From positions 3,782,001 through 3,846,000 of the forward strand of contig CM074764.1 in assembly GCA_037355855.1 (NCBI GenBank): 64,000 nucleotides of DNA, given 5' to 3'. Below the pieces are notes generated by a model. The model was not told the DNA's origin. It was given only the letters and a program-made list of their open reading frames with translations, and ran no database searches. The DNA comes from Pseudo-nitzschia pungens. Its lineage: Eukaryota > Bacillariophyta > Bacillariophyceae > Bacillariales > Bacillariaceae. Made by a program: the position numbers and the translations under genes. Shown in pieces: positions 29,011 to 60,909 of the stretch; the first letter of the stretch is position 1, and every line of letters begins with the position of its first letter.

Positions 29011-29119
29011 GAATATTTTTAAAGAACTCTTGCCATGGTCGTCTTTCCTTGTCAGCGATCGTATCGGCCGTTCCCCTTTTCAGCAATCGTATCGGTCGTT
29101 CCCCTCCGTCTCCGTCTTT

Positions 29120-29510: not shown

Positions 29511-29514
29511 ACGT

Positions 29515-30115: not shown

Positions 30116-30354
30116 GTAACTTAGTGTTGGTACATATTATACAGGATGAGGCTTCCCCGAGATGGTGGTAGCATTAAAAGATGGAGAGAACACCTGTTTA
30201 GCAGTAGTAGACAGTAATAGTGGCACTACTGGATTGTATGCAGTTGGTATTGTTGGTTCGAGTCCCATCACGGGAATGTCTTTTGCTACATCACGATGCA
30301 ATAGCAATATTTTTGCTGCGAAGCACATGTCACAATAAGTGAGCTATTCAGTTA

Positions 30355-31390
30355 TTCAATGGTGACACCGAAATTATTGGTGCTTTTGGAATGCTTCTTT
30401 TTGAATACTCTTGCCCATGCATAGGATCAGGAATATTCACACTGGAATCACACAAAAATTGACCACATTCATTCAGATATTTGATTTTACAGTATTTTCT
30501 AGTAAATTTTCCAGTAGTGGACCAAATATTAATTATTCAGTGGTGACATCCAAACTTTCAATGATTTTTGAATACTTCTTTTTGAATACTCTTGCCCATG
30601 GATAGGATGAGAAATATTCACACTGGAATCACACAAAGATTGGCCAGATTCATTCAGATATGTGATTTTACAGTATTTTCTAGTAAATTCCACAGTACTG
30701 GGCCAAATATTAATTATTCGGTGGTGACATCCAAACTATTGGTGATTTTTGAATACTTCTTTTTGAATACTCTTGCCCATGCATAGGATGAGGAATATTC
30801 ACACCGGAATCACACAAATATTGGACAGATTCATTCAGATATTTGATTTGGTACTTTTTTCTAGTGAATTCCGCAGTAGTGGAACAAATATTAATTATTC
30901 TGTGGTGACATCCAAATTATAGGTGATTTTTAAATACTTCTTTTTGAATACTCTTGCCCATGCACAGTATGAGGAATATTCACATTGGAATCACACAAAC
31001 ATTGGCCAGATTTGCTCAGATATTTGATTTGGTACTTTTTCTATTGAATTCCGCAGTAGTGGACCAAATATTAATTATTCAGTGGTGACATCCAAATTAT
31101 AGGTGATTTTTAAATACTTCTTTTTGCATACTCTTGCCCATGCATAGGATGAGGAATATTCACACTGGAATCATACAAACATTGGACAGATTTGCTCAGA
31201 TATTTGATTTGGTACTTTTTTCTATTGAATTCCGCAGTAGTGGACCAAATATTAATTATTCAGTGGTGACATCCAAATTATAGGTGATTTTTGAATACTT
31301 CTTTTTGCATACTCTTGCCCATGCATAGGATGAGGAATATTCACACTAGAATCATACAAACATTGGCCAGATTTGTTCAGATATTTGATT
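30355..31390. repeat. ~181-bp tandem repeat (E2)
   Basis: About six units; the GTGACATCCAAA landmark recurs near 30362, 30541, 30721, 30903, 31084 and 31263. Same family as 3700-4935. Confidence 0.88.
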
Positions 31391-32155
31391 TGATGGTATA
31401 TTCACTGAGGTAGTACTATTCTTGCTGCTTGTAAGAGTAGTACAGTTATACACTGCTGCTACATACTACTGCAGTGCGTAGGTAGTAGTACATAAGAGGT
31501 AGTCAAAAATTATGGCGCAGCGGGGCAGGCTCTCTTTGGTTTAGGTGGCGCGCAATGATACCACCATCAGGTTTCTACTGGTTTCTACTATTACTTCAGT
31601 ACGGTACATACTACTAGTAGTAACTCTACTGCTATCATGTAGAAGAAATCAATTCTCAGCAAATAAATGCATGACAGAAAATGCATGTGTCGGTCGTAAA
31701 TCTTACTTCACATAATTTTGGGTCGGAATGGAACAAGAAAGACGGCAACTGGAAATGGTAAGTGAACCACATCAAGGTTGGAGGAGGTATTAATAATGGA
31801 TTTTGATTTGTCTAACTGTGCATCATTGACTTGCCTGCTTGCTCCTGATAGGGAGGCGACCGCAACTGCTGATGAAGTAGGATGCAATGGCAAATGAAAT
31901 ACAATGCGACGGTGAGTAAACCGCATCAAGATCTGGGGTATTGATAATGGATTTCAATTGTTCTAATTCTGCATTGAGTTGCCTGCTTGCTACTGATAGG
32001 GAAGAATCAACTTTAATGCGACGGGGCAACTGAAAAATGATGCGAAAAATGATGCGACGGGGCAACTGACACATATTGCGATCGCAAGACAAATATGATG
32101 GGATCGCAACTGACAAAATGATGCGATTGCAACTGATGAAATATGATGCGATGTG

Positions 32156-32545
32156 AGGAGACCTTTACTGGCAGTACAGATACCGGTATGGATGAAATTA
32201 TCACGATGACCATTATTTAAAAATCGTTTGAACCAAAATTTGTGTGGTGTGCATGAGGACGAAGACGATCGGAGCAAAGAGCAACGGCGATTTCAAGGAC
32301 GACGAAGACGATCGAAGCGAAGAGCAACGACGCTTTCAGAGAGGACGACGAAGCCAATCGAAGCGAAGAGCAACGACAATTTCAGAGAGGACGACGATTT
32401 CAGGGAGGACGACGAAGAGGAAGGCAATTTGGAGTGAAGAGCAACAACGACTTCAGGGAGGACAAAGACGATCGAAGCGAGAAGCAACAGACGATCGAAA
32501 CGAAGAGCGACGACGATTTCAAGGACGACGACTTCTTTTAACAAA
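32156..32545 (+). repeat. Gene D remnant and GAAGAGCAACGACG tract (E2)
   Basis: 32156-32240 matches the last bases of gene D as in E1. It is followed by degenerate repeats around GAAGCGAAGAGCAACGACG to 32545. Not coding. Confidence 0.65.
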
Positions 32546-33040
32546 CCAAAATTTGTGTGTGCGTGTGTGAGAAAATTGAACAGAGAATAAACAATTATTA
32601 GAGTAATATCAATATTTATCAAAAGAAAGACTTATATTTTGCATCATAGTGTTTCAAAATTTTTTTTCATGGGGGTCGCGATTCCTGGGCGTCGGGTAAT
32701 AATTGTGATTTTTGTGATGAATTTCTTGAGGGGTGTGATGGGAAATACTTTGTGTCGGGATGAGAAATCAATTTTTGGGAGTGAATTTCTGCAACAGTCT
32801 CATAATATATAATGATGGTAGGGTCGGTAATAATGAGTCAGATTGAAAAAAAATTTGGGTCGAGTTTGAATTTTATTATTTTTTTTTCGTAATTTTCGTA
32901 ATTGAGGTAGTTACTGGGTCGCGATTGGGGTTGCGAATCGGGAGAGAGCTAGGAATCGAGCTACGTCAAAATGAGCCAGGAATAAATCGCGACCCCCCTA
33001 AATAAATTCTTGGGAGGGGTCGCGAAACAGTTTTCGGACG
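32546..33040 (+). repeat. Right arm of E2 with terminal inverted repeat
   Basis: Almost identical to 6136-6638, ending GGTCGCGAAACAGTTTTCGG then ACG. Confidence 0.75.
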
Positions 33041-34671: not shown

Positions 34672-35081
34672 CGTCCGAAAACTGTTTCGCGACCCATCGC
34701 GACCAATCGCGACCCGATCGCGACCCAATCGCGACTTGTCAAAAAAAATTCAACCCCAATTTTTTATTTCACAACCTCTTTTTTATTATTCTCAACTTTT
34801 TTCCATTATTCTCAACCACATTTCTCCCTTTTCTCAACTCCCCCAACGGGTCGACGGAAATGTTCTGTTCTAGACCCTGACATTCAGTCCCTCTTCACAC
34901 TTTCATTCCATTTTACACATTTGACACACTTGACTCAACACAACAAATAATTTTTAATCCAATTTACTTCAATCACACCAAAGTGTTACGTCGTGCACCT
35001 TTGTGAACCTTTTTTTTCAGTGGTGTCACATCACATACCGGTACCCCAGCTAAGAATCGCATCACAAAAACACACACCACC
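34672..35081 (+). repeat. Left arm of E3: TIR, TCGCGACC array, gene A leader
   Basis: TIR at 34672-34696, then TCGCGACC copies at ~10-12-bp spacing to 34735. An AT/CT-rich leader contains a TTTTTTTTCAG tract at ~35010, a possible splice acceptor or pyrimidine promoter element. The gene A start lies in the context CACCACCATGCCG. E4 has the same arm at 54593-55004 with few differences. Confidence 0.75.
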
Positions 35082-38000
35082 ATGCCGAAAGCTTCCTCGG
35101 ACCCAAGGCACTTTGCCAATGAGCCCAGAATACCCAAGACATTCCATTGTCGCAACTGCATTGCCTCCGGAAGAAGTAGAAAATCAAAATCCTTCAAGGG
35201 ATACAAACAAGAATCGAGCCACTTTCACACCTACCGATATGTCTGTAGAGGACTTTCATTTCACTTGAAGTCCAACATTGATTGCCGAACTTATTATGTT
35301 AAGAACGATCTTATGGATTTTATTTCTTCTGCGAAAGCAGAAGTCACCCTCCCTTTGGTCCGACACACACCATCACAGTATGGACTGACAATGACACAGA
35401 ATGGACCACAAATCCCCCCCTCCCTTGCCGAAACGAACACCGCCGCAACAACTTCTATCCATACCTCACTCAATCCTCAAGTGATCGCCAATGTATTGAT
35501 CCCACCCATGGACAGACAGGCAATCGAATCGCATATGGCTGAAAATGAGGAACAAATGAATGCAATCGATTCCGCTGTTGATGCCTCAGATCATTTTGAT
35601 GCCAGTTCCGACACCGAAATATCTGATTCCGAAATCATGAAAAGCACCACCATTTCCATAAACGAAAGAGAGGAAACATTCCGGAATCACACTCTGTTCC
35701 CACCCCGCCCGGAACTTATTGCTGAAATCAACCTCCTCAACATTATATCACAATACAAGCTACCTCTTTCCACTTATCAAACCATTTTCAATTGGGCGAA
35801 AGACAGCAACAATCTTCCCGGTTTTGATTTCAAGGTTACACCAACAAGAAAACGTGATGCCATTTTCCAAGAAATAAAAAAAAATCTTGGCATATCTTCC
35901 GAACCAAAATTTGAGCCCAAAATTGTGAATTGGCTTCCCGACCACAAACCTGCTCAAATATATGTCCGCTCTTTTCTGGATGCTTTGTATTCCCTTCTGT
36001 CGAACCCAGATTTAATGATGGAAGAAAATTTGTCATTCCCCAACAGCAACACCCCCTTGTCACCAGAGCATTTCCCGGTTCGAACTGATTCCTGTCCCAT
36101 CACAGAGTTGCATCACGGATCATGGTGGTCGGATTCCTGGAGATCCCTTTGCATAGAAGAAAATTCTGAAATCCTTGTTCCCATCATTTTTTACATGGAT
36201 GGAATTAGCTTGGATGCGCACGGAAGACTATCACTGACTCCACTCAACATGACCCTAGGCATATTCAACATCGAAACCAGGAAAAGGCCGGAAGCATGGA
36301 CAACAATCTATTTTCATCCTGACTCTGATTTGGAGAGCATCCACCATTCAAGAAAACCATCTCCAAAAGAATCAATCCAAAACCTCCATAATGCCCTAGA
36401 AGTGGCGCTCCGATCTTTCAAAGAAGCATGTGAGTCCACCCATGAAGGCATCCAATGGAATTTTCTCCCTTATGCCGGCCAATTGTGGCAAGTCAAAATG
36501 AAATTTGCAATAGCCTATGTCATCGGTGACACCGAACTGCATGATAAATTATGTGGGAAATATGGTTCCGGGTCGGGTGGTGTACAAAAGCTTTGCCGAC
36601 ACTGTAATTGTTCCACCAAGGACATAAATATTCCATCAGCACAACAAACAGCCTCTCTTTGGGTCCCATCAGATTTTCATACATTTCCAGACTCAGATGC
36701 CACCACCACCAAGGAATATTTCAACAATATTTCTCACCACCAAATCAGAAATGCATTCCACGGTCTCAACTTTGGTACCAATGTAAACAATATCCACCTA
36801 GCCACGCCCGGTGAATGCCTCCACATGCACCAGCTGGGGTGTGCCAAACGAGAGGTAGAATCCCTGGAGCAACTGATGAAGGGTTCAATACCATGCCCGT
36901 ATGCTGATCACCTAAAGACCGGTGTTTCCACAGTAAATACAATTGGGCATGTCTCTCAAAAATATGGAGCCCTACTGTCAAGGCAGTCGGATCGTGACTT
37001 TCCCAGAACTAAATTCAGCTCCAATCTTCTATCTGTCACTAAAAAAGAGGGGCACGATTACAGTGGTATGCTGATTTCGATTCTTCTAACATTGGTTTCT
37101 GAATCCGGCAATGCAGTTTTGAGCGACCCCTCATTTGTGAAGAAACATATTGATGTCATCGAACAAATCATCTCAATGGAAGAATTTCTCAAACACGGCC
37201 GGCCTACCACAAAGTGCATCAAAAATCTTCCCAAAACCATTATTCATTTCCTCAACTCTATCAATGGCACCTGTCTTAGGAAGGGAATGGGAACAAAATT
37301 GATAAAAAATCACCTCTACTTTCACATTCCAAAGTACATCAGTCTGTGGGGTCCAACATTAGGTTTCGATTCTGCATACAGTGAAAGTCACCACAAGACA
37401 GAAATAAAAGCACCATCCAAAAACACTCAACAAAATGCCGCAACCTTAGTCCATCAGACAACCCGTCGGAAAGAAGAAGCATCTCTCCTTCGACTCGCAA
37501 CCTCTCATCACAAGTTGAAGAAAGTGGGTGGTGATCCTAAAGTCATTTCCCCCCGTCCTCCACAGTCTGGGTCCCGTTTCACCATTTTTCGTGACGGAAC
37601 TAGAGGTTCAATGAAATGGGACTTAAGACGAAACTACAACAAACCATTTCATTCAACAATTGTACTAGATTTTGTTTGTGACTCCGTCCTTCCTTTGCTG
37701 GATGACAGATCCAGCATATTTGGGTTCACCGAACACAACAGATGGGATTCTGTGAATCGCGTCAACTACCTGTTCCGATGTCACCCCTCATACAGGTCTG
37801 ATTCAGGCCAAGTTAACAGTGTATGGTTTGACTGGGCAATGTTTGCAGTTGATGACAACACTGAAATCCCCTGTCAAATGCTGTGTTTTCTGCATGTAAA
37901 AGATTTGAAACAACCCACATCGGCTGTGAATGGATACGATGTTGATTCAGATGGCATCTACGCGGTTGTCAGAAAGTTTAGAGAAGATCCAAGGTCTACA

Positions 38001-38273
38001 TCATCTCACTTTGTAAAAAGTGGCTATCTCGACAATACTTTATATTTATTTAACACTGACACTATTCTTTCGGAACTGGCAGTTGTTCCTGAACTGGACG
38101 AGAATGCGGAACCAGTAAACAATGGTCGGTGGTTCGTTGTTCACAATCGATTGCAATGGCTCGAATTCTTTGAAAAGAGGAATAATTCTATGACCTATAC
38201 TACCTACGAGAGCCTCTACTCCGCTTGCCCTGTACAACGAGAGGAATCAGACAGCACCGGCATTGCTGAATGA
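35082..38273 (+). CDS. Gene A (E3): probable CACTA/Plavaka-like transposase
   Basis: 1063 aa. The N-terminal ~60 residues are basic with a CRNC pair. An acidic, Ser-rich linker spans ~140-200. The core shows FYMDGISLDAHG (D373, D378), then MTLGIFNI. YVIGDTELHDKLCG (D483) follows, with a zinc-knuckle-like KLCRHCNC insert, and then PGECLHMHQLGCAKREVESL (E578). This order (DG..D, GD...G with Cys pairs, then LHxxHxG) matches the RNase H-fold transposases of CACTA/Plavaka elements as I know them; it is a motif-level assignment. The E4 copy differs at about 39 residues, with no indels. It would recognise the TCGCGACC-bearing ends and move all E copies. Confidence 0.72.
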   Translation: MPKASSDPRHFANEPRIPKTFHCRNCIASGRSRKSKSFKGYKQESSHFHTYRYVCRGLSFHLKSNIDCRTYYVKNDLMDFISSAKAEVTLPLVRHTPSQYGLTMTQNGPQIPPSLAETNTAATTSIHTSLNPQVIANVLIPPMDRQAIESHMAENEEQMNAIDSAVDASDHFDASSDTEISDSEIMKSTTISINEREETFRNHTLFPPRPELIAEINLLNIISQYKLPLSTYQTIFNWAKDSNNLPGFDFKVTPTRKRDAIFQEIKKNLGISSEPKFEPKIVNWLPDHKPAQIYVRSFLDALYSLLSNPDLMMEENLSFPNSNTPLSPEHFPVRTDSCPITELHHGSWWSDSWRSLCIEENSEILVPIIFYMDGISLDAHGRLSLTPLNMTLGIFNIETRKRPEAWTTIYFHPDSDLESIHHSRKPSPKESIQNLHNALEVALRSFKEACESTHEGIQWNFLPYAGQLWQVKMKFAIAYVIGDTELHDKLCGKYGSGSGGVQKLCRHCNCSTKDINIPSAQQTASLWVPSDFHTFPDSDATTTKEYFNNISHHQIRNAFHGLNFGTNVNNIHLATPGECLHMHQLGCAKREVESLEQLMKGSIPCPYADHLKTGVSTVNTIGHVSQKYGALLSRQSDRDFPRTKFSSNLLSVTKKEGHDYSGMLISILLTLVSESGNAVLSDPSFVKKHIDVIEQIISMEEFLKHGRPTTKCIKNLPKTIIHFLNSINGTCLRKGMGTKLIKNHLYFHIPKYISLWGPTLGFDSAYSESHHKTEIKAPSKNTQQNAATLVHQTTRRKEEASLLRLATSHHKLKKVGGDPKVISPRPPQSGSRFTIFRDGTRGSMKWDLRRNYNKPFHSTIVLDFVCDSVLPLLDDRSSIFGFTEHNRWDSVNRVNYLFRCHPSYRSDSGQVNSVWFDWAMFAVDDNTEIPCQMLCFLHVKDLKQPTSAVNGYDVDSDGIYAVVRKFREDPRSTSSHFVKSGYLDNTLYLFNTDTILSELAVVPELDENAEPVNNGRWFVVHNRLQWLEFFEKRNNSMTYTTYESLYSACPVQREESDSTGIAE

Positions 38274-38329
38274 ACCATTCTACACTAGGCAGGTAACTAA
38301 ACAATAAAAAATCTTTGTATCATTTGCTT

Positions 38330-38905
38330 ATCTTCGTCGTCATTAAAATCGTCGTTGCTCTTTGCTCCGATAGCCTTTCTCTTCGTCGTCCTTCCTAAAA
38401 TCGTCGTTGCTCTTCGCTCCGATAGCCTTCCTCTTCGTCCTTGAAATCGTCGTCGCTCTTCGCATCGATTGTCTTCCTCTCTCTTCGTCCTTGAAATCGT
38501 CGTCCCTCTTCGATTCGATTGTGTTCGTCGTCATTAAAATCGTCGTTGCTCTTTGCTCCGATAGCCTTTCTCTTCGTCGTCCTTCCTAAAATCGTCGTTG
38601 CTCTTCGCTCCGATAGCCTTCCTCTCTCTTCGTCCTTGAAATCGTCGTCGCTCTTCGCATCGATTGTCTTCGTCGTCATTGAAATCGTCGTTGCTCTTCG
38701 CTCCGATGGCCTTCCGCTTCGTCGTCCTCCCAAAAATCGTCGTTGCTCTTTGTCGTCCTCCCTGAAATCGTCGTTCTCCCTGAAATCGTCGTTGCTGTCC
38801 GCTTCGATCATATTCGTCGTTGTCCTTGAAATCGTCGTTGCTCTTGAAGTCGTCGTTGCTCCTCGCTTCGGTCGTCTTCGTGGTCGTCTCTTCGATCTTC
38901 TATTT
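38330..38905 (-). repeat. AAATCGTCGTTGCTCTTCG repeat between genes A and B (E3)
   Basis: Degenerate 50-60-bp units in the space where A and B converge, opposite in orientation to the tracts at the right ends of E1-E3. A ~120-bp block at 38341-38465 recurs at ~38536-38660. The open frame readable on the minus strand here is repeat artefact. Confidence 0.8.
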
Positions 38906-38908
38906 GAA

Positions 38909-40999
38909 TCAGTCGTTCCGCCTGAACTCTGAAACGTCCTCTGCCTCCGTGTCTGATTCCGAAAGTTCCAAATCGGAGTCGTAGAATTCCGCATCCGAAT
39001 CTGAATCTGAATCAGAACCAGCATCACCAGCATCCTCATCGTCATTCCCAGGGGGATTATTGGCTGCAGCATCAGCCTCAGCAACGGCCGCATCTGCTTG
39101 ATCAAAGGCAACTTGGGCAGCGTCTCTGGCTGCCACGGCTTCATCACGAGCTGCTTGGGTTGCCATTTCTTCCGCCTCTGCCTCATACCTTTCATCCTGA
39201 GTGGCATTTTGATTCTCATCGATTTCTATCCAACGGTCCAACGCAGCTTGCCACTCAGCCTGTCGTTGTGCGAGCTCTACTTGCGCTGCCTGCAAATTAA
39301 CTTCGGCCACACGTCTTGCTCTTCTGTGTTTGCCCCAATCAAGCAAACAGAACACAAATGTTTCTGGACCACGACCTCCCCTTCCCATTCCGTATTTTCT
39401 GTGAAATTCAGGGTTTTTGGTGGCAAAACCAATCTTGTTCTCCAGACTGAAAACAGTACCTTCTTCGTCTGTACCAAATTTGTCATAGTGAAGACCGACC
39501 GGGTGTTGCACAAGTGTTGTGGAATTAAGGGAACAAAACTGATACAAAATTTCACCAATGTCATTCGAACCTGCACGGGTCGTGGCTTTCTTGTGGTTTC
39601 TCAACTCTCGCGCAACAGCAAGAGGTACCACATTCAGCACCCCTTCCACTCCTTCAACAACAATGTTGCTCAGCTCTCTCAGAAGTAATGCACTGACTAT
39701 CTTCGACGCTGTGAATGGCTGAAAGAATTTGTATCGCGAAAACAAATCCTTGGTGATCGGCCCGATCTGTCCTCCATACTGAGGGTTGGAATATGCCCAA
39801 TGAATTGGACGTCCTCTTCTGTTGATGTAAAACACACGTATTTTGTGCCCGTCTGGAACAACGAAGGTTGCATTTCCCTTCCTAGGTGTAACACTCGGGT
39901 TTTCAAGCATCTGGAAGAGGGCTCGAGTTGGTCCACTGTATACTCCACTGCTGCCCCCAGAACGACTCCTTTCTATGTGGTTAGTTCTCGTCATTTTCTG
40001 AACTTCCAGAAACAACGATCGAACCTCCTTCTGCTTCATTTGAAGAGCATCACTTCCATGATAGAACCGAGCCAAAAGCAGGTTCTGTTTCTGTCCCAAT
40101 TTAGGTGATTCAGAAAAACTTCCAACAATGATGGTAACGTCACATTCTTCCCCACGATCCTGAACTGAGAACACCCTGGAATTGCTGAGTGATGCCGCTG
40201 TATATTCCGGAACTTCAATGATGCCTTTGGTACACTGGGAACCATGCACTACGATGAGTTGCACCCTGTACATCCTTTTTTTATTTGGATTGGCAATCCC
40301 GGGACACATGACATTCACCACACTTGTTTTCACCGTGTCGGAATTGCTGGTAAGTTTGCTGGGTCTAACATCCATTGCTGCAGCTTCTCTAGCAAGATTG
40401 TACCCCACGACAAAATGTTTCACTCCAGCAAGGTTTGGCTCCTTCCCGAATCCATGGCAATCAATGACATTCTCCGAGATAAGAGGGGTGTCGATTATCA
40501 CATTGTACTCTGGTAACACGATGTAACCATCAAACCTAAGTTGCACTTGTCTGCATTCCACATGAATGAAATGACGATGGGACCTCAGTACCTCCTCTCT
40601 TTGATCAACAAAAATACAGCCGTGACAAACTGATACCTCTCTCCGGTTATCAATCAAAGCATTTTTCATTTGTTTGATCCCATCAGGCAGATCGACGCTG
40701 CTACCGCCTGTCCTTTTTTCTATGAGTCTAAAAATAGACTGCAAGCATTTTCTGCAAGAAAATGTGTTACACCTTGTGCAAACAATTCCATCAGAGGTGC
40801 GTCGACAGTTCTTAGTGCCCTTCTTCCCCCTTGTACTTGCCTGCGTCAACGTCGCTATGCGACCCAAATTGCACCGGCACGAATTGTCCTTACTTTTCTG
40901 CTCGTCCTTTCTCCTCAACCTCTCCTGCCTTATCTCCTTGTTTTCAACAAGGTCGGTCCCAATTTTTTTGTTCCTCTTGGAAGATGTGGATCGTGTCAT
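38909..40999 (-). CDS. Gene B (E3): Cys-rich conserved protein of unknown function
   Basis: 696 aa from the ATG at 40999, chosen because E4 has an ATG at the matching place (MTRS/MTRT). The basic N-terminus is followed by a cysteine cluster, residues ~35-150 (CRCNLG, NCRRTSDGIVCTRCNTFSCRKC, VCHGC and a HRHFIH pair), which looks like two or more zinc sites. A conserved central part follows (YIVLPEYNVIIDTPL, NVIDCHGFGKEPN, IIVGSFSESP, NPQYGGQIGP, VQHPVGLHYDKFG). Residues ~570-650 are an Ala/Gln-rich coiled coil and the last ~50 are acidic. No family recognised. Retained between E3 and E4 in spite of roughly a quarter of residues changing, so it is under selection. Its place beside the transposase suggests a transposition or host-targeting helper. 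Confidence 0.75.
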   Translation of the reverse strand: MTRSTSSKRNKKIGTDLVENKEIRQERLRRKDEQKSKDNSCRCNLGRIATLTQASTRGKKGTKNCRRTSDGIVCTRCNTFSCRKCLQSIFRLIEKRTGGSSVDLPDGIKQMKNALIDNRREVSVCHGCIFVDQREEVLRSHRHFIHVECRQVQLRFDGYIVLPEYNVIIDTPLISENVIDCHGFGKEPNLAGVKHFVVGYNLAREAAAMDVRPSKLTSNSDTVKTSVVNVMCPGIANPNKKRMYRVQLIVVHGSQCTKGIIEVPEYTAASLSNSRVFSVQDRGEECDVTIIVGSFSESPKLGQKQNLLLARFYHGSDALQMKQKEVRSLFLEVQKMTRTNHIERSRSGGSSGVYSGPTRALFQMLENPSVTPRKGNATFVVPDGHKIRVFYINRRGRPIHWAYSNPQYGGQIGPITKDLFSRYKFFQPFTASKIVSALLLRELSNIVVEGVEGVLNVVPLAVARELRNHKKATTRAGSNDIGEILYQFCSLNSTTLVQHPVGLHYDKFGTDEEGTVFSLENKIGFATKNPEFHRKYGMGRGGRGPETFVFCLLDWGKHRRARRVAEVNLQAAQVELAQRQAEWQAALDRWIEIDENQNATQDERYEAEAEEMATQAARDEAVAARDAAQVAFDQADAAVAEADAAANNPPGNDDEDAGDAGSDSDSDSDAEFYDSDLELSESDTEAEDVSEFRRND

Positions 41000-41480
41000 T
41001 ATGTGAGGGTCGTTGCTCTTCACTTCGGTTGTCGTCGTCGTCCCTGAAATCGTCGTTGCTCTTCGATTCGATCGTCTATGTCGTCGTCCCTGAAATCGTC
41101 GTCGCTCTTCGCTTCGATCGTCTTCGTCGTCCCCGAGATCGTCGTCGTGCTACGTTTCGATCGTCTTTGTCGTTGTCCCTGAAATCGTCGTCGCTCTTCG
41201 CTACGATCGAAATCGTCGTCGCCCTTCGCTTCCCTCTTCGCTTCGATCGTCTTCGTCGTCCCTGAGATCGTCGTCGTGCTATGTTTCGATCGTCTTTGTT
41301 GTCGTCCCTGAAATCGTCGTTGCTCTTCGCTACGATCGTCTTCGTTGCTTGAAATAGTGGTCGCTCTTCGCTTCGATCGTCGTCGTCGATCGAAATCGTC
41401 GTCGCGCTACGTTGCGACCGTCTTAAATCGTCGTCGCGCTTCGTTTCGATCGTCGTTGTCGTCGTCCCTGAAATCGTCGT
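41000..41480 (-). repeat. AAATCGTCGTTGCTCTTCG repeat upstream of gene B (E3)
   Basis: Second tract of the family, running directly up to the start of gene B, built from GATCGTCTTCGTCGTCCCTG and AAATCGTCGTCGCTCTTCGC units. It would be transcribed as a leader if B starts upstream. Confidence 0.8.
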
Positions 41481-41589
41481 AACCGGTGGTTAGATGTGAA
41501 AAATGTTAGTACTAGTAGTAGTAACGAGTCTAAATCAAAAATACACCGTACACATACATCTTAGAGGCAGAAAATACCAGAATATTTTT

Positions 41590-42124
41590 AGGAAACTATG
41601 CATACCTTTTCCGATCGTTCGTATCGTCGTCGTCCTCCCTCCTCGTTCCAATCGTCGTCGTCTTCCCTCCTCGTTCCGGTCGTCCTCCCTCCTCGTTCCG
41701 ATCGTCGTCGTCTTCCCTCCTCGTTCCGATCGTCGTCGTCGCTCTTCGTTCCAAAGGTCGTCGTCGCTCTTCGTTCCAATGATCGTCGTCGCCCCTCACT
41801 GTTCCGAATGTACAAAATAAACAACACACCGTTAGCTACTATTTTCGTCGTCGTCCCTCTTCGTCCCGATCGATTCAAGTGAAGTACCTTGCGTCGTCGT
41901 CCTTTCTCGTCCCGATGGTCGTCGTCGTCCCTCCTCGTTCTGATGGTCGGCGTCGTCCCTCTTGCTAATGTACAAAACAAACAACGGACTGTTAGTTACG
42001 ATTTTCTTCGTCGTCCATCTTCGTCGTCGCTTTGTTCCCATGCACGTACCTCCTTTGCTTGTCGTACCTCCTGTTGTTGTCGTACCTCCTACGATCGATA
42101 TTTGTTGTCCCTAGCGTCGTACTC
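41590..42124. repeat. CCGATCGTCGTCGTC-type degenerate repeats (E3)
   Basis: ~50-bp units such as TCCCTCCTCGTTCCGATCGT with two copies of a TGTACAAAATAAACAAC motif (41810 and 41970). Similar sequence occurs in E4 at 61340-61860. No gene. Confidence 0.65.
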
Positions 42125-42665
42125 GTAGATATCTGGGTAAGCCAGGTGATTCGAGGACTGCAGCCCACCCTACCTTGATAACAAAAGAAAACAGCAAGGA
42201 TTTCAAGAATGGCCGGTTCCGTACTCTCTTTGCTGTTTGTCTCTCCAAGATGGTACCAGGCGCCTCGTGGTTCACTTTCAACTGGACCGGCCAGAAAATT
42301 CCAACACCGAAACAAAAATGAAAATTATGAAAATTTTGACGAGGGTGATGTGGGGCGGAAAATCGATTTTGCGATGATCATCAAAAGACACCGCAATAAT
42401 GCACATAATGTAAGTACGTGACAGTACTGTTTGTACAGGCCAAGAAAAAATGACTAAATATACTGTACATGACAGTACTGTTTTTACAGGTAAGGAAAAA
42501 TAAAACATCCACGTACCTAGATTATGGTACTAAGTCTACAGGCTGAGTGAAAGAAAAAATGACGCGCAAAAAATGACTGGTGTGTATAGCTTGTACGCAG
42601 GGGATGTGTAGGTTTCCAGTACTGTGTACACTGTACGTACGGTACTGGTAGAAATCTTTTGGCGC
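42125..42665. other. Conserved non-coding block of the E family (E3 copy)
   Basis: Lies between the divergent genes B and C. Landmarks CTCCAAGATGGTACCAGGCG (42244), GATGTGGGGCGGAAAATCGA and GGGGATGTGTAGGTTTCCAG (42600) are shared by all four copies. It is a candidate bidirectional promoter or cis-acting element. Confidence 0.6.
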
Positions 42666-42718
42666 GAAGTGCTGGTTGGTTGTCCAGGGTTGGTATGTAT
42701 GAGAGCATCATACTAGTG

Positions 42719-43438
42719 GCATTAGGCTGTAACATTATTTACTAGCATCGGGCTGTAATATTATTTGCTAGCATCGTAATAGTGCCCACTGTATGTTGCT
42801 AGCACTACTACTAGGCTGTAATATTATTTTCTAGCATCAGAATAGTGCCCACTGTATGTTGCTAGCACTACTACTAGACTGTAATATTATTTGCTAGCAT
42901 CGTAATAGTGCCCACTGTTTGTTGCTAGCACTACTAGGCTGTAATATTATTTGCTAGCATCGTAATAGTGCCCACTGTATGTTGCTAGCACTACTAGGCT
43001 GTAATATTATTTGCTAGCATCGTAATAGTGCCCACTGTATGTTGCTAGCACTACTAGGCTGTAATATTATTTGCTAGCATCAGAATAGTGCCCACTGTAT
43101 TTTGCTAGCACTACTAGGCTGTAATATTATTTGCTAGCATCGTAATAGTGCCCACTGTATTTTGCTAGCACTACTAGGCTGTAATATTATTTGCTAGCAT
43201 CGTAATAGTGCCCACTGTATGTTGCTAGCACTACTAGGCTGTAATATTATTTGCTAGCATCGTAATAGTGCCCACTGTATGTTGCTAGCACTACTAGGCT
43301 GTAATATTATTTGCTAGCATCGTACTAGTGCCCACTGTATTTTGCTAGCACTACTAGGCTGTAATATTATTTGCTAGCATCGTACTAGTGCCCACTGTAT
43401 TTTGCTAGCACTACTAGGCTGTAATATTATTTGCTAGT
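42719..43438. repeat. 60-bp tandem repeat upstream of gene C (E3)
   Basis: About 12 units of a 60-bp sequence containing CTGTAATATTATTTGCTAGC and ATCGTAATAGTGCCCACTG. From 42900 the units align at exact 60-bp spacing with very few substitutions. E4 has about three units at 62570-62780. The 400 bp from here to gene C are unique and shared with E4. Confidence 0.95.
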
Positions 43439-43841
43439 AGTGACCATTGTTCCTTGCTTGCAGTAGGCTGTACTACAATACATTTTGACACGATGACAAC
43501 AGAAAGTGGTGGGAGTAACATTGATTTCTTTGCAAACCAATACGTTATTCCTATCATTATTATTACCCCCTAAACAAAACCTTGCCCATGACGCATGACC
43601 GACCCTTGACTGTTAGTAGTGCCTGTGGACAACGGTTTTTTTTCAGTTTCCAAAACATTCAGTTCAAATTAGTTTTGTTCCACGGTGAAAAAAAGGATCA
43701 CATCGTGTTTACATTTTAAACATTTTGAGATCAATTGTTACGATCAAGCAATTGCCTAATGAATTCATGCTTCGGAGCCTTTAAGATGAACAAACATAAT
43801 TTCAATTTTCATACAGGAGCATCAGTTCACTGTGAAACATC

Positions 43842-46199
43842 ATGGCAAGGCACAAAAGGAATAGAGATTCACCGTCTCGTCGGTCTGGAAATTCATCTCG
43901 GTCCACACGGCGACGAACAAATGCTCTGAGAAGATCACCCCGTTCACCCCCCGAACGAAACTATCGTGAGGATTCATCTAGCAGTGATGATGGTGATGAA
44001 GCAGTACCTGCTCGTGACAAATATGTACCTCCACCAGTATCGGAGAATGAGGAGGAACTTGAGCAAGATTCCACCAACACTGAACAACCCCAACAAGAGA
44101 ATGAGGAGGAACTTGAGCAAGATTCCACCGACACTGAAGAATCTTCTGGTGGAGAATCGGAAAGTGAGAATGAAGACAGTGAATCGGAAAGTGAGAATGA
44201 AGACAGTGAGGATGAAGACAACAACCGGGAATCGAAGCGTGACACCCATCCGCAAATGCCTGACTTCCCATGGGAAAATTGGGATAACGAAGGCGAGGCC
44301 GATGACCAAAATAAAACTAATCCTTCCGTCGGGGCTAAGGGAACCGACGATCCTGACAATGACCAAGACTATATCACTTTGCAGGATGTTCTTCGCCAAA
44401 CTACTAATTCTTCTCCGGATTTGAAGGAAAACGAAGAAGATGACCGAAACGAAAAGAAAGATAATGACGATCCTCCCGTCGGGGCCAAGGGCAACGATGA
44501 CCGAAAAACCAACAATTCTTTCGAGGCTCGTGGTGCCGACGATTCAAGCGAAGACGACGATTCGAACGATGACGAAGACAAGGACCGAAAGGAAAAGAAA
44601 GGTAATCCTCCCGTCGGGGCCAAGGGCAACGATGACCGAAAAACCAACAATTCTTTCGAGGCTCGTGGTGCCGACGATTCAAGCGAAGACGACGATTCGA
44701 ACGATGACGAAGACAAGGACCGAAAGGAAAAGAAAGGTAATCCTCCCGTCGGGGCCAAGGGCAACGATGACCGAAAAACCAACAATTCTTTCGAGGCTCG
44801 TGGTGCCGACGATTCAAGCGAAGACGACGATTCGAACGATGACGAAGACAAGGACCGAAAGGAAAAGAAAGGTAATCCTCCCGTCGGGGCCAAGGGCAAC
44901 GATGACCGAAAAACCAACAATTCTTTCGAGGCTCGTGGTGCCGACGATTCAAGCGAAGACGACGATTCGAACGATGACGAAGACAAGGATCGAAAGGAAA
45001 AGAAAGTTAATCCTCCCGTCGGGGCCAAGGGCAACGACGACCGCAAAACCAACAATTCTTTCGAGGCTCGTGGTGCCGACGATTTGAGCGAGGACGATGA
45101 TTCGAGCGAAGACGACGATGCCAAAGCCAACGACAGGGGTGGGGAAGACGACGAGCCTAAAGCGAACGAAGCCACAAACCAAAACAAAGCCATCGGGGCT
45201 GTGGAGGACGACGTTCCTAAAGCGAACGAAGCCACAAACCCAAAAAAAAACAAAAAAATTGACTATGACAATAACGAGGTACGGATTGAACGCAGGCTCG
45301 GCCGCAAACAAAGTACACAGCCAAAAAATGCCAAGAACATGAAAGACAAAGGCGTTAGAGGAAAACTAACAACGGTTGCAAAAAACGTAAAAGAACTTCA
45401 GTTTTGCAGCACCTATGGAGATATGACAAAACAAAAAGAAAGTCCCGGCTTTATTAACTTTTTGGGTTCCTACGACGACATCATTCCAAGAACAAGTGCT
45501 AAATCAAATTTTGAGTCCGATTGGGACTATCAGAGAAAGAAAGGACCAAAACTCACATTTCTTGTCGATCCCGCATTTGACCTATATAGAAAAAAAATTG
45601 GTGATCAATTAATCAGTGCTGGCAATTGGTTTAAGGAGAACAAGTGTGAAGAGACAGGACCATATCACACACAAACTGTGGAAGATTATTTCGATAGGAA
45701 CTTCGGTGATGCTGCGCCAGCAACAAATGGGAAATTCAAACGTGATGACATCAAGAGTGTGTCCCCCTCTGAAATAGAAAAGTGGACGGAGAAACAGATG
45801 GAAGATATCGTTCGGGAGGAAACTAAAGCTATGACAACAGAAGAAAAAGGGTTGTTCCGTCGCTCGGTGAATGCTGTGATGGGCGAGCAGCAACGCTACA
45901 AGAAGAAAGGGAATGGTGCGATCCGTGAAGGAAAGAAAAATTGTTTCGTAGTCGCCCACGAGAACGTCAACCAGAAAAGAAGGGGGGACGAGAAGAAGAA
46001 ATTAGCAAGCCTCAGTAATAGTGTTCAAAACAAGGAACAGGAGACTGAACAAGACAGAGTGAAAAAGAAGAAAAGGAAAAAAAAGGGGAAGAGGATACAG
46101 AACTCAACGTCCAACCTTCCACCTCATATGAAGAAGCATCCTCCACCAGGTCCACCGAAGCCAGAGAAAAAGCCTCCAGCAGGGGCACAACAGAAGTAG
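43842..46199 (+). CDS. Gene C (E3): acidic repeat protein with basic C-terminus
   Basis: 785 aa from the ATG at 43842. Residues 1-45 are Arg/Ser-rich, RS-like. Residues ~45-140 are Glu/Ser/Asp-rich with repeated NEEELEQDST and SESENED. Residues ~210-425 hold five copies of a 45-aa repeat (PPVGAKGNDDRKTNNSFEAR, then an acidic half). After a linker comes the only folded-looking part (residues ~510-680; LQFCSTYGDMTKQK, FINFLGSYDDIIP, FLVDPAFDLYRKK, IEKWTEKQMEDIVREE). The tail is Lys-rich, then Pro-rich. It is probably nuclear; the charge pattern resembles histone-chaperone-like or splicing-associated proteins, but no family is recognised. E4 has the same N-terminus with a different repeat layout. 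Confidence 0.7.
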   Translation: MARHKRNRDSPSRRSGNSSRSTRRRTNALRRSPRSPPERNYREDSSSSDDGDEAVPARDKYVPPPVSENEEELEQDSTNTEQPQQENEEELEQDSTDTEESSGGESESENEDSESESENEDSEDEDNNRESKRDTHPQMPDFPWENWDNEGEADDQNKTNPSVGAKGTDDPDNDQDYITLQDVLRQTTNSSPDLKENEEDDRNEKKDNDDPPVGAKGNDDRKTNNSFEARGADDSSEDDDSNDDEDKDRKEKKGNPPVGAKGNDDRKTNNSFEARGADDSSEDDDSNDDEDKDRKEKKGNPPVGAKGNDDRKTNNSFEARGADDSSEDDDSNDDEDKDRKEKKGNPPVGAKGNDDRKTNNSFEARGADDSSEDDDSNDDEDKDRKEKKVNPPVGAKGNDDRKTNNSFEARGADDLSEDDDSSEDDDAKANDRGGEDDEPKANEATNQNKAIGAVEDDVPKANEATNPKKNKKIDYDNNEVRIERRLGRKQSTQPKNAKNMKDKGVRGKLTTVAKNVKELQFCSTYGDMTKQKESPGFINFLGSYDDIIPRTSAKSNFESDWDYQRKKGPKLTFLVDPAFDLYRKKIGDQLISAGNWFKENKCEETGPYHTQTVEDYFDRNFGDAAPATNGKFKRDDIKSVSPSEIEKWTEKQMEDIVREETKAMTTEEKGLFRRSVNAVMGEQQRYKKKGNGAIREGKKNCFVVAHENVNQKRRGDEKKKLASLSNSVQNKEQETEQDRVKKKKRKKKGKRIQNSTSNLPPHMKKHPPPGPPKPEKKPPAGAQQK
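44471..45120 (+). repeat. 135-bp in-frame tandem repeat in gene C (E3)
   Basis: Units start at 44471, 44606, 44741, 44876 and 45011, each exactly 135 bp (45 codons). The first four are almost identical and the fifth is more diverged. Such identity points to recent expansion. Confidence 0.95.
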
Positions 46200-46319
46200 G
46201 AGTCTGCAAAATTTGGTACACCCAACAAGAAAAGGAAGACAACGGGCGTGTCATGGAATATTATAAAAGATAGTATAATGTGATTTGGTAATTTTATCTA
46301 ATAAATTGTGAATAATTCG

Positions 46320-46935
46320 TAATGTTTGAATACTTCTTTTTGAATACTTTAAATAATGGTGGGTATATGCATCAATTAGAATACTAAAAGGGTATAAAGT
46401 TGCTACCAATTATATTTCGGATGTAAGTTCTGATTTCTTAGAGAAATTCTGGGTACACAAAATTACAGCATTCGTGAAATTGTCCTAGATTATTTGTGTT
46501 CCGCACTGAATAATGGTGAGTATATGCATCAATTAGAATACTAAAAGGGTATAAAGTTGCTACCAATTATATTTCGGATGTAAGTTCTGATTTCTTAGAG
46601 AAATTCTGGGAACACAAAATTACAGCACAGAATGTGCAAATTTCCTGTGGATGGGTGAAATTGTCCTAGATTATTTGTGTTCCGCACTGAATAATGGTGA
46701 GTATATGCATCAATTAGAATACTAAAAGGGTATAAAGTTGCTACCAATTATATTTCGGATGTAAGTTCTGATTTCTTAGAGAAATTCTGGGAACACAAAA
46801 TTACAGCACAGAATGTGCAAATTTCCTGTGGATGGGTGAAATTGTCCTAGATTATTTGTGTTCCGCACGGAATAATGGTGAGTATATGCATCAATTAGAA
46901 TACTAAAAGGGTATAAAGTTGCTGCAACTTATATT
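46320..46935. repeat. ~180-bp tandem repeat downstream of gene C (E3)
   Basis: About 3.5 units. AATAATGGTGAGTATATGCA recurs near 46352, 46509, 46689 and 46871; the first unit lacks ~25 bp. It occupies the position of the 181-bp repeats of E1/E2 but has a different sequence, sharing mainly GAATACTTCTTTTTGAATAC at its start. The 530 bp from here to gene D show nothing else. Confidence 0.88.
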
Positions 46936-47464
46936 TTGGATGTGACACTTGCTTTGTAAAAAAAATCCTCGGTTGACCAAAATCCACCCCAAAATATGCT
47001 TTTTTCCGGAACGGGCATCATACTGACCAATGTTTTCTTGTCTTAGGGTGTTAAAAATGCATGGTAACACAAGTGGCTATGTAAGATAATGGTGATTGTT
47101 TGGTTGCTGGTATGTCCAAGAATATAAAATGGAATAAAGCAGGATGAAAAATCTGACAAAAAAAAATAGTAATCTAGCCCATTGGCGAAGACAAATGTAA
47201 TTCTTGTGAAGGATTCCATCCTGCCGCATCTGATCCTTGTGACCACAATGCTACCACAGAGACGATACGATCCTTTTATTTCAGCCGTGGATATTGTCAT
47301 TATATATTTGGTTCTATCACTGCCGGTACTACTGTAGGTATGCGTAGTAGTTGAACTTCTGCTACTGCTGGTATACTTATGTAGTAGTACTACTACTAGT
47401 AATTTCTACCTACTGTCCCGCAGGGAATAGTAGAGCCAAAAATACAATCAATAGTGAATACCGT

Positions 47465-49311
47465 ATGGGTACAGTAGAGAATGAACAGAGATGTGCACAG
47501 GTGGATAGAAAAAAATTATGGCGCGGGTGGGAATCCTCTAAAACATTTGGCCACGTCACCTACAATTTCCATAGTGAAGTGTATGCCATTACAAGTTGCG
47601 TGGATGGTGAAAGGAAAATGATTAACAGGTTTTTTGTTAGTAGTAGTGAAAAAACTGTGTTCACAATTTTATGGCTTCACATATTTTTTTTACTTCCGAC
47701 GCCCGAAACAATGCCTACCGTATATGATGAGTATCAGCAAATAGAAAAGAAATCAGATTGCAATGCACCAAGAAAGAATCGAAGTGGAAAAATTGTCTCC
47801 AATGCTAATACAGGTGCTGATACTACTGCTAGTATTACCCCTACGAAATCGAACCCAAAGACAAGTAGAAAACTACCACCCACCTCAGGTGGTGCTGATG
47901 AAAAAAATAAAAGAACCAAGAACAACCCGACCGCGGTTTTCGTTGGTACCACACCACCAACCAACAAACACCCCGCCGCCCCGGGTGTTGTTACACCAAG
48001 ACCGATTACGACCGGTACCAAAACAACACCAAGACCCACATACGAAGCATTGCTGCAACAGCTAAAAGAGAGCCAGCAGAAAGTAGCTTCTTTAGAGAGG
48101 GATGTGACAACACTGCAGAAGGATACAAAAAAAGAAGAACCCACGCTGGAGGCAACTACAACAGGGAAGAAGCCAAAGCCACAGATGGTACGAACCGTAA
48201 GTGAAGCAAAATTAGAGATAACTAAGGCGCAATCGGATACACTTAAGAAACATCAAAAAGACGCGGGTTTGGAAGCACAGTTGACACGGCACATAAGAAA
48301 TAGTTGGTTTCGTAGCATGAAGTTTATCGTGGATGAAAATAAGGTCAAAAAAATTTTGAAGAAAGCGATTGCGTCCCGAGCTGTCGTTCCACCCCATGGT
48401 ATTTCATTTGAAATTTTTTATGGTTTTAACAGAAGGTTGGTGTACAAGGGTCTTTCCACGCTGCGGCACAATGCTCAAACTTTGGCTAGAAAACATTTTC
48501 TCGGTACGTGCTTACTAAGTGAATAAATTGGTTGCTATTACTGCTTGGTTGAGATTGATGGTATATCCTCCCCTGCTACTCTGACACTTTCTACTGCTGT
48601 GTACACGTCGTACTAGAGGACACACTCGATCGCGAAGGCATTGTGCCAGATTCCTTTCCAGGTAAAGTGGAGATTGTGATGCGGGAGAGTACTAGTAGTA
48701 GTGAAACTAGTAGTAGAAAGAAGCTGGGACTGAACCCAGGGTACAGAAGGTATGACAACAACAGTGAAAATGATGATTTTTATTACTTTGTGACTCGGAT
48801 TCTATCAAGCATCTCTCCAATAGAGAGGGGCTACAGATGGAAAAAGACGACATGTTTGCTGAGTGAAATATTCACAGAAAGCGATGAAGCATTTGCATTG
48901 ATGATGATTCATAATGAGTATGATGTTTGGGTGAATCATGTTGAGCAAAAAAGGAACGGTGGTGGCAGGATTGTGAGAAGGAGGAAGAAAAAGAAATTTT
49001 GTGACCAATACAGTGGAGAGGAACAATCATGGTCGAAGGAAGGTATAGCACTGTTCAATAACTTGTGCAGGGAGATTGATGTGCTGAGGAAGAATCCGAG
49101 AACGGGTAGAGAGTGTGAGGAAAGATTGAGAGAGAGGCTCCGTCGCGAGAGTGAAAACGATGACAACAACAACAGTCCGTACGATGAGGACTGGGTGCAG
49201 GAGGAAGAAGTTACTGAATACATTAGTCCGGAGCTACAAGCTTTGCTAGATGTAAATGAAGATGAGGAGGACTTTACTGGCAGTAACGATATCGCGTTGG
49301 CCAGTCTTTAA
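47465..49311 (+). CDS. Gene D (E3): spliced accessory protein, ~577 aa
   Basis: The first exon frame is open from 47351. I chose the ATG at 47465; the ATG at 47711 (MPTVYDEY) is a strong alternative. A GT-AG intron at 48504-48616 joins exon 1 to exon 2 exactly in frame, and both exons otherwise end at nearby stops. The N-terminal part is Thr/Pro-rich. A coiled coil follows (EALLQQLKESQQKVASLERD), then a conserved-looking domain (QLTRHIRNSWFRSMKFIVDE). Exon 2 contains DEAFALMMIHNEYDVWVNHV and SWSKEGIALFNNLCREIDVL. This pattern is familiar to me from uncharacterised diatom transposon-associated proteins, where a FALLVLEN..W block precedes a W..EG..RFNEL block; that link is from memory and unverified. 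Likely a DNA- or transposase-binding helper. Confidence 0.62.
48504..48616 (+). other. Predicted 113-bp GT-AG intron in gene D
   Basis: Donor GTACGTG and acceptor TACTAG after a pyrimidine-containing stretch. The phase matches (1 nt of exon 1 plus 2 nt of exon 2 make one codon). Unspliced reading stops within 25 bp of the donor. Confidence 0.65.
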
Positions 49312-49319
49312 AAATCTTT

Positions 49320-49547
49320 TGAACCAAAATTTGTGTGATGTGCATGAGGACGAAGCCAATCGAAGCGAAGAGCAACGACGATGTCGAGGACGACGAAGGC
49401 GATCGGAGCGAAGAGCAACGATGACTTCGAGGACGACGAAGAAGACAATCAAAGTGAAGAGCAACGACGACTTCAGGGAGGACGACGGAGCCGAAGGCAA
49501 TCGGAGCGAAGAGCAACGACGATTTCAAGGACGACGACTTCTTTTAA
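49320..49547 (+). repeat. GAAGAGCAACGACG repeat tract (E3, right side)
   Basis: Same family and position as 5816-6135 and 32240-32545, directly after the gene D stop codon. Confidence 0.8.
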
Positions 49548-50149
49548 CGAACCAAAATTTGTGTGTGCGTGTGTGAGAAAATTGAACAGAGAATAAACAA
49601 TTATTAGAGTAATATCAATATTTATCAAAAGAAAGACTTATATTTTGCATCATAGTGTTTCAAAATTTTTTTTCATGGGGGTCGCGATTCCTGGGCTTCG
49701 GGTAATAATTGTGATTTTTGTGATGAATTTCTTGAGGGGTGTGATGGGAAATACTTTGGGTCGGGATGAGAAATCAATTTTTGGGAGTGAATTTCTGCAA
49801 CAGTCTCATAATATATAATGATGGTAGGGTCGGTAATAATGAGTCAGATTAAAAAAAATTGGGGGAAGGGGGGAATTATTTTGAGAAAACAAATAATTTT
49901 TTTGAAAATATTGATTAATTTGATTAAGTGACTGAAGAACAAATATTTGAGTCTTAAAAAAAATCGGGTCGAGTATGAATTTTTTTTTTTTTATTGTTTT
50001 TTCTCGTAATTGAGGTAGTAACTGGGTCGCGATTGGGGGTTGCGAATCGGGAGAGAGCTAGGAATCGAGCTACGTCAAAATGAGCCAGGAATAAATCGCG
50101 ACCCCCCTAAATAAATTCTTGGGAGGGGTCGCGAAACAGTTTTCGGACG
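49548..50149 (+). repeat. Right arm of E3 with terminal inverted repeat
   Basis: Matches the right arms of E1 and E2, with an extra ~100 bp of AT-rich sequence at ~49855-49965. Three TCGCGA motifs lie within the last 125 bp before the terminal inverted repeat. Confidence 0.75.
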
Positions 50150-54592: not shown

Positions 54593-55004
54593 CGTCCGAA
54601 AACTGGTTCGCGACCCATCGCGACCAATCGCGACCCGATCGCGACCCAATCGCGACTTGTCTAAAAAAAATTCAACCCCAATTTTTTATTTCACAACCTT
54701 TTTTCCATTATTCTCCACTTTTTTCCATTATTCTCAACCACATTTCTCCCTTTTCTCAACTCCCCCAACGTGTCGACGGAAATGTTCTGTTCTAGACCCT
54801 GACATTCAGTCCCTCTTCACATTTTCATTCCATTTTTACACATTTGACACACTTGACTCAACACAACAAATAATTTTTAATCCAATTTACTTCAATCACA
54901 CCAAAGTGTTACGTCGTGCACCTTTGTGATTTTTTTTTTTCAGTGGTGTCACATCACATACCGGTTTCCCAGCTAAGAATCGCATCACAAAAACACACAC
55001 CACC
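54593..55004 (+). repeat. Left arm of E4
   Basis: Nearly identical to 34672-35081, with the TCGCGACC array in the first 65 bp and a T-run ending in CAG before the gene A leader. The 97 bp between the LINE and this arm hold TACTAGTAGTA repeats only. Confidence 0.75.
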
Positions 55005-58196: not shown

Positions 58197-58254
58197 ACCA
58201 TTCTACACTAGGCAGGTAACTAAACAATAAAAAATCTTTGTATCATTTGCTTCC

Positions 58255-58745: not shown

Positions 58746-58779
58746 TCTTCGTTGTCGTCCCTTCGATCCTCTATTCGAA

Positions 58780-60897: not shown

Positions 60898-60909
60898 GTT
60901 ACTGAATTC

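What the first reader, a model, noticed from the sequence alone, without database searches (positions are those of the whole stretch)
34672..50149. A 15.5-kb DNA transposon with four genes and 2-bp target duplication
The ends of E3 are exact inverses and the target site can be reconstructed from an unfilled relative. It carries a likely DDE transposase plus three proteins of unknown function (B, C, D), all open. Cut-and-paste transposons of this size with a conserved accessory gene set are uncommon, and I cannot name the family. Motifs in gene A fit CACTA/Plavaka, but the terminus (CGTCC) is not the usual CACTA and the duplication is 2 bp.
Basis: partly seen in the sequence, partly recalled or inferred. 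Interest (0 to 1): 0.9.

Follow-up and report, generated by a model that had tools for sequence, protein, structure and literature searches.

The report
Mosaic 15-kb transposon with RAG1-like enzyme
This is a recently mobile 15-kb jumping gene from a diatom-like genome, moved by an enzyme predicted to fold like the one that shuffles our antibody genes, and carrying a block of unknown genes that its copies appear to swap among themselves.

Summary
Confirmed and extended. E3 (34672-50149) is an intact cut-and-paste transposon: 24-bp exact inverted ends, AA/AA duplication. Of 36 copies checked, 35 show a matched 2-bp duplication; the other (E2) has an empty site in the window. Three copies 99.9% identical over 4 kb lie at different sites with different duplications: recent movement. 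Its predicted fold is RAG1-like; its C-terminus resembles BAH histone readers by fold only. Gene D is one spliced gene (495 aa), also found beside other Plavaka transposases. B (orphan) and C form a cassette: copies with A and D 93-97% identical can have B/C near synonymous saturation, and two lineages with diverged A and D share nearly identical B/C. Breakpoints lie near tandem arrays. Median dN/dS is below 1 for every gene. Of 36 paired copies, 23 are 5-7.6 kb. The CGTCC termini match neither described Plavaka group; my searches found no report of Plavaka in diatoms. New variant of a known kind. Functions of B, C and the BAH-like part are inference.

The parts
34672..50149 (+). E3, complete autonomous-type element, 15,478 bp, flanked by AA/AA
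34672..34695 (+). left terminal inverted repeat, CGTCCGAAAACTGTTTCGCGACCC (24 bp exact)
50126..50149 (-). right terminal inverted repeat (24 bp exact inverse)
34687..34725 (+). left subterminal motif TCGCGACC, 4 copies at 34687, 34697, 34707, 34718 (10-11 bp apart); putative protein-binding sites
49680..50134 (.). right subterminal motif, copies at 49680, 50025, 50096 and 50127; none elsewhere in E3
35082..38273 (+). gene A, Plavaka transposase, 1063 aa: N-terminal Cys/His cluster C23/C26/H61/C68, RAG1-like core with D373/D483/E768, BAH-like C-terminus
35700..37529 (+). RAG1-like core of gene A (residues 207-816), predicted model
37551..38141 (+). BAH-like part of gene A (residues 824-1020), by fold comparison only
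   Evidence: not confirmed by sequence profiles
38331..38885 (.). tandem-repeat array 1; near the left boundary of exchanged blocks
38909..40999 (-). gene B, 696 aa, Cys-rich N-terminus, acidic/Ala-rich tail; orphan in the searches made
41009..41480 (.). tandem-repeat array 2 (unit like array 1)
42751..43437 (.). 60-bp tandem array, 11.4 units; near the right boundary of the B-only difference (E3 vs E4)
43842..46199 (+). gene C, 785 aa, acidic repeats (135-bp array 44470-45115) and a conserved core
46317..47016 (.). 181-bp tandem array; near the right boundary of the B+C difference
47711..48503 (+). gene D exon 1 (predicted)
48504..48616 (+). predicted 113-bp GT-AG intron of gene D
48617..49311 (+). 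gene D exon 2 (predicted; spliced product 495 aa)
785..6638 (+). E1, 5,854-bp derivative without genes A-D, GA/GA
27898..33040 (+). E2, 5,143-bp derivative without genes A-D, CG/TG
54593..64000 (+). E4, second full-length copy (14,679 bp), running 5,271 bp past the window; TG/TG
18998..19037 (+). unfilled relative of the E2 target site

Best explanation
E3 is a recently mobile, probably autonomous cut-and-paste transposon of the Plavaka family (clade of EnSpm/CACTA, Transib and RAG1) in a diatom-like genome. Gene A binds the two ends (24-bp inverted repeats plus TCGCGACC subterminal repeats spaced about one helical turn), cuts with a RAG1-type D373/D483/E768 active site, and joins the element to a target with a 2-bp stagger. 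Gene D, present beside other Plavaka transposases in the same genome, is the likely partner of the transposase (DNA-binding or assembly role). Genes B and C are a later-added cassette, kept by purifying selection, that is exchanged between element copies and lineages, probably by recombination at the tandem-repeat arrays around it. B and C probably help the element in host chromatin or against silencing. Shown: structure, duplications, recent copies, gene conservation, discordant histories of A and B/C. Predicted: fold, active site, intron. Inferred: what D, B and C do, that D came first, and the exchange mechanism.
Against: E3's own protein is 1.3 bits under Pfam's Plavaka cut-off. The termini fit neither Plavaka group in Kojima 2025. 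No fungal Plavaka sequence was put in a tree here, so the exact place in the clade is untested. No transcript or transposition assay. Gene D trees do not reject the B groupings (p-AU 0.349 and 0.173), so D's independence from B/C rests on the dS contrast. The AU groups were named after the dS table was seen. Exon 2 dN/dS is near 1 among the closest copies (few changes), and dN/dS at saturated dS is rough (four B pairs gave no dS). Breakpoints come from pairwise alignments through repeats, good to a few hundred bases only. 3 of 29 open A copies lack a B match. Near the sister copy L072 there are C-core matches on both sides and a B match about 5 kb upstream, so that B/C are absent from the sister family is shown only by the lack of listed matches at the other two copies read.
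Confidence: 0.85

Rival explanations
1. E3 is a divergent CACTA/EnSpm transposon rather than Plavaka.
For: Same clade and same C(2)C/H(3-4)H signature; subterminal repeats and a second protein recall EnSpm TnpA/TnpD (recalled); subterminal motif seen.
Against: Termini CGTCC, not CAC; 2-bp duplication, not 3. Pfam Plavaka is the only family hit at E<=0.01 among 34 members, and no CACTA-type transposase family is among the 19 listed at E<=10.
Confidence: 0.08
2. B and C are passenger genes, captured by chance and carried without function, like the gene pieces in Pack-type elements.
For: Of 36 paired copies 23 are 5-7.6 kb, and the two short ones in the window lack all four genes, so B/C are not needed in cis.
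Against: B has dN/dS 0.11-0.20 in pairs with dS>1.5, and C 0.38-0.70 in pairs with dS>0.05; B or a part of it accompanies 26 of 29 full-length open A copies.
Confidence: 0.12
3. The A-versus-B/C discordance reflects gene conversion of A and D homogenising old, separate lineages, not movement of B/C.
For: A, D and both ends are 93-97% identical or more in most of the 11 copies while B/C types are old; gene conversion between copies is common in transposon families (recalled).
Against: C7m36 and C4p61 share B/C at dS 0.04-0.10 but differ in A (0.56) and D (0.79-0.90), so B/C crossed a lineage border recently. Homogenisation of A and D may still explain other pairs such as E3 and C4p61.
Confidence: 0.25
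4. The BAH-like C-terminus is not a histone reader but a family-specific beta domain (e.g. DNA or partner contact).
Against: Several BAH entries (ZMET2, DNMT1, ORC1b, SHL, Orc1) hit the same residues 824-1020, outside the RAG1-matched core; the region is conserved across the family (W915, D917 invariant in 63).
Confidence: 0.4

Closest known systems
Plavaka (PlavakaA/PlavakaB of fungi; Kojima 2025, PMC12730594)
   Same: Pfam Plavaka transposase; 2-bp duplication; D..D..C(2)C..H(3-4)H..E signature; habit of carrying accessory genes that pass between transposon lineages (TET/JBP in fungi).
   Different: Termini CGTCC..GGACG, not TGT..ACA or CATCA..TGATG; diatom-like host; 13.9-16.6 kb in the 11 copies examined; accessory genes B, C, D with no TET/JBP found by Pfam; B/C discordant between copies.
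CACTA/EnSpm
   Same: Same clade; asymmetric subterminal repeats inside short inverted repeats; a transposase plus a second protein (recalled).
   Different: Ends not CAC..GTG; 2-bp, not 3-bp, duplication.
RAG1/RAG2, ProtoRAG and Transib
   Same: Gene A's predicted fold over about 470 residues; same order of catalytic and zinc-type residues (RAG1 positions recalled); RAG2 brings a histone-reading PHD finger (recalled), as the BAH-like part would here.
   Different: Different ends and duplication length (recalled for RAG/Transib); the putative reader is fused to the transposase.
Sister Plavaka family in the same genome (L069, L072, L075)
   Same: Gene A 56% identical (L069); gene D homologue downstream; right end CGTCTGATAACTG resembles CGTCCGAAAACTG.
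   Different: No B or C match is listed at L069 or L075; L072 has such matches just outside it; its left end was not located.

Membership tests
Plavaka (transposase family) | Match to Pfam PF18759 | tested here: met
   26 of 34 members, best 8e-16; 56 of 57 matches in this genome over the cut-off (11 only with neighbours), 0 of 14 controls; but E3's own whole protein 25.0 vs 26.3 bits
Plavaka (transposase family) | D..D..C(2)C..H(3-4)H..E | tested here: met
   D373, D483, C505/C508, H744/H748, E768; signature
Plavaka (transposase family) | 2-bp (or 2-3 bp) target duplication | tested here: met
   35 of 36 copies
Plavaka (transposase family) | Groups with fungal Plavaka in a CMCT tree | not tested
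   no named fungal reference sequences in hand
PlavakaA | Termini TGT..ACA | tested here: not met
   termini CGTCC..GGACG
PlavakaB | Termini CATCA..TGATG | tested here: not met
CACTA/EnSpm | CAC..GTG termini and 3-bp duplication | tested here: not met
KDZ (Zisupton) | 8-bp duplication | tested here: not met
   the 8-bp rule
RAG1/Transib superfamily fold | RAG1-like core | tested here: met
   (predicted model)
BAH domain | BAH fold | tested here: inconclusive
BAH domain | binds modified histone tail | not testable with these tools
   needs a binding assay

The most novel reading that the evidence does not exclude
A third Plavaka lineage (termini CGTCY..) in diatoms whose RAG1-fold transposase carries its own BAH histone reader, and which evolves by trading an orphan two-gene chromatin or anti-silencing cassette between copies at tandem-repeat joints: a modular eukaryotic DNA transposon with a phage-like way of evolving.
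Probability: 0.35. Interest if true: 0.85.

Novelty: new variant of a known kind. Interest (0 to 1): 0.7.

Why it matters
RAG1-fold transposases are the source of V(D)J recombination. A many-copy, recently mobile family outside animals and fungi, with a putative chromatin reader fused to the transposase, would give an independent test of how such enzymes are steered by chromatin. B/C shared between lineages whose A and D differ gives a natural experiment on what accessory genes do for a DNA transposon, and the near-identical copies and 5-7.6 kb derivatives with the same ends supply ready substrates.

Tried and rejected
Catalytic E578: near-invariant (>=90%), but it does not follow the H(3)H pair; E768 fits the CMCT signature and the fold. 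Gene B: no relative in two protein searches (7994 candidates scored in each), none in IMG/VR, no convincing Pfam family in 11 copies (best bMERB_dom, E 0.0039 in 2 of 11), no PDB sequence match (one at E 0.38), no PHROG at E<=0.1; AlphaFold with 2 sequences gave pLDDT 33.9, so no fold is claimed. I considered a TET/JBP-like enzyme because of an HYD motif in B and found no support. Viral origin: gene A has no relative in IMG/VR with the single-sequence query and no viral fold match at E<=0.001; the PDB sequence search with its alignment found nothing convincing (one at E 0.64). BAH by sequence profile: not found. Left end of the sister family: sought in L069 and L072-L078, not found. Distant D matches (about 22-34% identity) and the weak exon-2 PHROG hit (E 0.0016) were not classified. 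In the fold search, P-element and Hermes transposases also match the core at lower Z (6.4 and 4.8). Literature: 'Plavaka'+'diatom' 3 papers, 2 listed, none about it by title; 'Plavaka'+'RAG1' only Kojima 2025; 'BAH domain'+'transposase' 22 papers, none by title on such a transposase; 'diatom' with DNA-transposon terms 17 papers, listing only; Kojima's main text does not contain 'diatom' or 'BAH', its supplements were not seen. Most subscription papers are not held, and Repbase was not available. Of papers, I read Kojima 2025 in outline, section 3.2.2 and passages; all others were seen in listings only.
Full report
WHAT IS THERE. The element called E3 runs exactly from 34672 to 50149 and is flanked by AA on both sides; its ends are exact inverses for 24 bp. 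Seven terminus matches lie in the window where 100 shuffles give none, making three whole elements (E1, E2, E3) and the left end of a fourth (E4, completed from the genome at 14,679 bp). The nearest named relatives of gene A come from records labelled Psemu1 (Pseudo-nitzschia multiseries, recalled) and Cylindrotheca fusiformis, which are diatoms (recalled). I therefore call the host diatom-like.

COPIES AND TARGET SITES. The 23-bp terminus (one free base) occurs 181 times forward and 179 times reverse genome-wide; the reversed pattern occurs 0 times. From the 100 places listed out of these 360, 36 inverse pairs could be made within 25 kb (28 ends left over): 23 are 5-7.6 kb, 6 are 12.5-17 kb, and 7 lie outside (1.0, 3.7, 8.9 and four of 19.9-23.2 kb). 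E1 and E2, the two short ones in the window, show no similarity to genes A-D; at least one other short copy (C2:2740766-2746712) holds matches to parts of A and to D, so 'short' does not always mean gene-free. I fetched the ends of 20 of the 24 pairs of 5-9 kb on C1 and C2: all 20 have one left-type and one right-type end and a matched 2-bp duplication, and none matches at 3 bp. Of 11 full-length copies chosen for an open gene A, all 11 have a 2-bp match: nine by script, and two with slightly changed ends (C7m46, C7m36) read from the printed flanks. Three more copies on C1, C2 and C6 are 99.9% identical over their first 4.0 kb, with AA, TT and TA and different bases in the 14 printed on each side: recent movement. 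The C6 copy has only part of B. E1 is GA/GA; E2 is CG/TG, where the empty relative at ~19018 suggests a CG duplication followed by one change. Total: 35 of 36.

NAMES OF COPIES. C3m = L009+L010, C5m = L011+L012, C7p = L013+L014, C9m = L015+L016, C4p = L017+L018, C7m46 = L019+L020, C4p61 = L021+L022, C11p = L023+L024, C7m36 = L025+L026, E4 = window + L027.

ENDS. In all 13 elements scanned, every copy of the 8-mer TCGCGACC (either strand) lies within 60 bp of the left end or 490 bp of the right. In E3 the left copies are at 16, 26, 36 and 47, spaced 10-11 bp; about 0.14 per strand is expected by composition. The most diverged copy, C7m36, keeps fewer. These are likely binding sites of the transposase or of D (inference).

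The splice motif is found in 9 of 11 full-length copies; no exon-2 match was found in C4p, and C4p61 did not match the motif used. Distant relatives in the genome lie in open frames of about 495-498 aa, and two that I read carry both parts in one frame. D relatives also stand about 2-3 kb downstream of four Plavaka matches outside this family, one read in L069. No B or C match is listed at L069 or L075, but around the third copy read (L072) C-core matches lie just outside on both sides and a B match lies upstream; whether they belong to it was not resolved. Transposase plus D is therefore the likely, not proven, ancestral pair.

GENES B AND C HAVE THEIR OWN HISTORY. Of 29 full-length open A copies (list drawn by hand), 26 have B or a part of it and 28 have D at the expected place (51 of 73 B rows and 48 of 122 D rows were typed in). 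Synonymous distance differs by gene (11 elements). E3 against C4p61: A 0.066, B 1.71, C 1.50, D exon 1 0.073. C4p61 against C7m36: A 0.563, B 0.041, C 0.101, D exon 1 0.79, exon 2 0.90. E3 against E4: A 0.116, B 0.683, C 0.116, D exon 1 0.033, so B can differ alone. Trees agree: two B clades with 100% bootstrap support are rejected by gene A (p-AU 1.2e-7 and 1e-47; groups named after the dS table was seen), whereas gene D does not decide (p 0.349 and 0.173). Identity along the element falls just after gene A's stop, at the tandem array 38331-38885, and recovers around the 60-bp array (E3 vs E4) or just past the 181-bp array (E3 vs C4p61 and C7m46). Recombination within these arrays is the simplest mechanism, but it is inferred, and for some pairs conversion of A and D would look alike. 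Median dN/dS is 0.17 (A), 0.23 (B), 0.45 (C), 0.52 and 0.35 (D exons) for pairs with dS>0.05. B has no relative outside this genome in the searches made; C has a conserved core with weak relatives elsewhere in the genome. By analogy with TET/JBP genes of fungal Plavaka and other transposon-borne anti-silencing genes, I think B/C most likely act on host chromatin or silencing (about 0.35); this is inference.

CLASSIFICATION. Member of Plavaka by transposase family, signature and duplication length; not PlavakaA or PlavakaB by its termini; not CACTA/EnSpm or Zisupton. A related Plavaka family in the same genome has right ends reading CGTCTGATAACTG (37 genomic matches to its 23-bp terminus, 0 of the reversed pattern; right end seen in two copies), so CGTCY may mark a third lineage. 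I found no report of Plavaka in diatoms, within a library that lacks most subscription papers and Repbase.

Noticed in passing
window 50912-54486: Reverse-transcriptase gene (RVT_1, E=3e-9) between E3 and E4, with a second ORF at 50912-52018: a LINE-like element.
   Followed up: partly
window 22734-25220: Copia-type reverse transcriptase (RVT_2, E=1.1e-10); 18340-18639 and 27220-27519 are 99% identical direct repeats, so the stretch looks like an LTR retrotransposon whose right repeat was hit by E2.
   Followed up: partly
window 10001-18000: Block of 59-63% G+C with strong GC skew and long overlapping ORFs on both strands; of the five tested, only weak CCCH zinc-finger hits at 16981-17754.
   Followed up: no
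window 6684-9713: Open frame of 1009 aa directly after E1 with no Pfam match at E<=0.01.
   Followed up: no
window 3712-4921, 30352-31374, 46317-47016: Tandem arrays of the same 181-bp period in E1, E2 and E3; E1 and E2 share theirs, but no blastn similarity to E3's array was listed, so the period is kept while the sequence differs.
   Followed up: partly
terminus base 14 across copies: The two ends of one copy nearly always share the same variant at base 14 (T/T or G/G): 19 of 20 shorter copies, exception L033/L034; E1 in the window also differs between its ends.
   Followed up: no
L079, L080: Relatives of gene C's conserved core lie in other ORFs of the genome (211 and 266 aa here), one next to a Cys-rich ORF.
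   Followed up: partly
G000:C1:3683215-3703135: A 19.9-kb copy whose gene B is split into pieces around a nested 5.8-kb element of the same family with its own AG/AG duplication.
   Followed up: partly
around L072 (G000:C5:4917745-4931193): A sister-family Plavaka copy with a B match upstream and C-core matches on both sides; its relation to the B/C cassette is unresolved.
   Followed up: no
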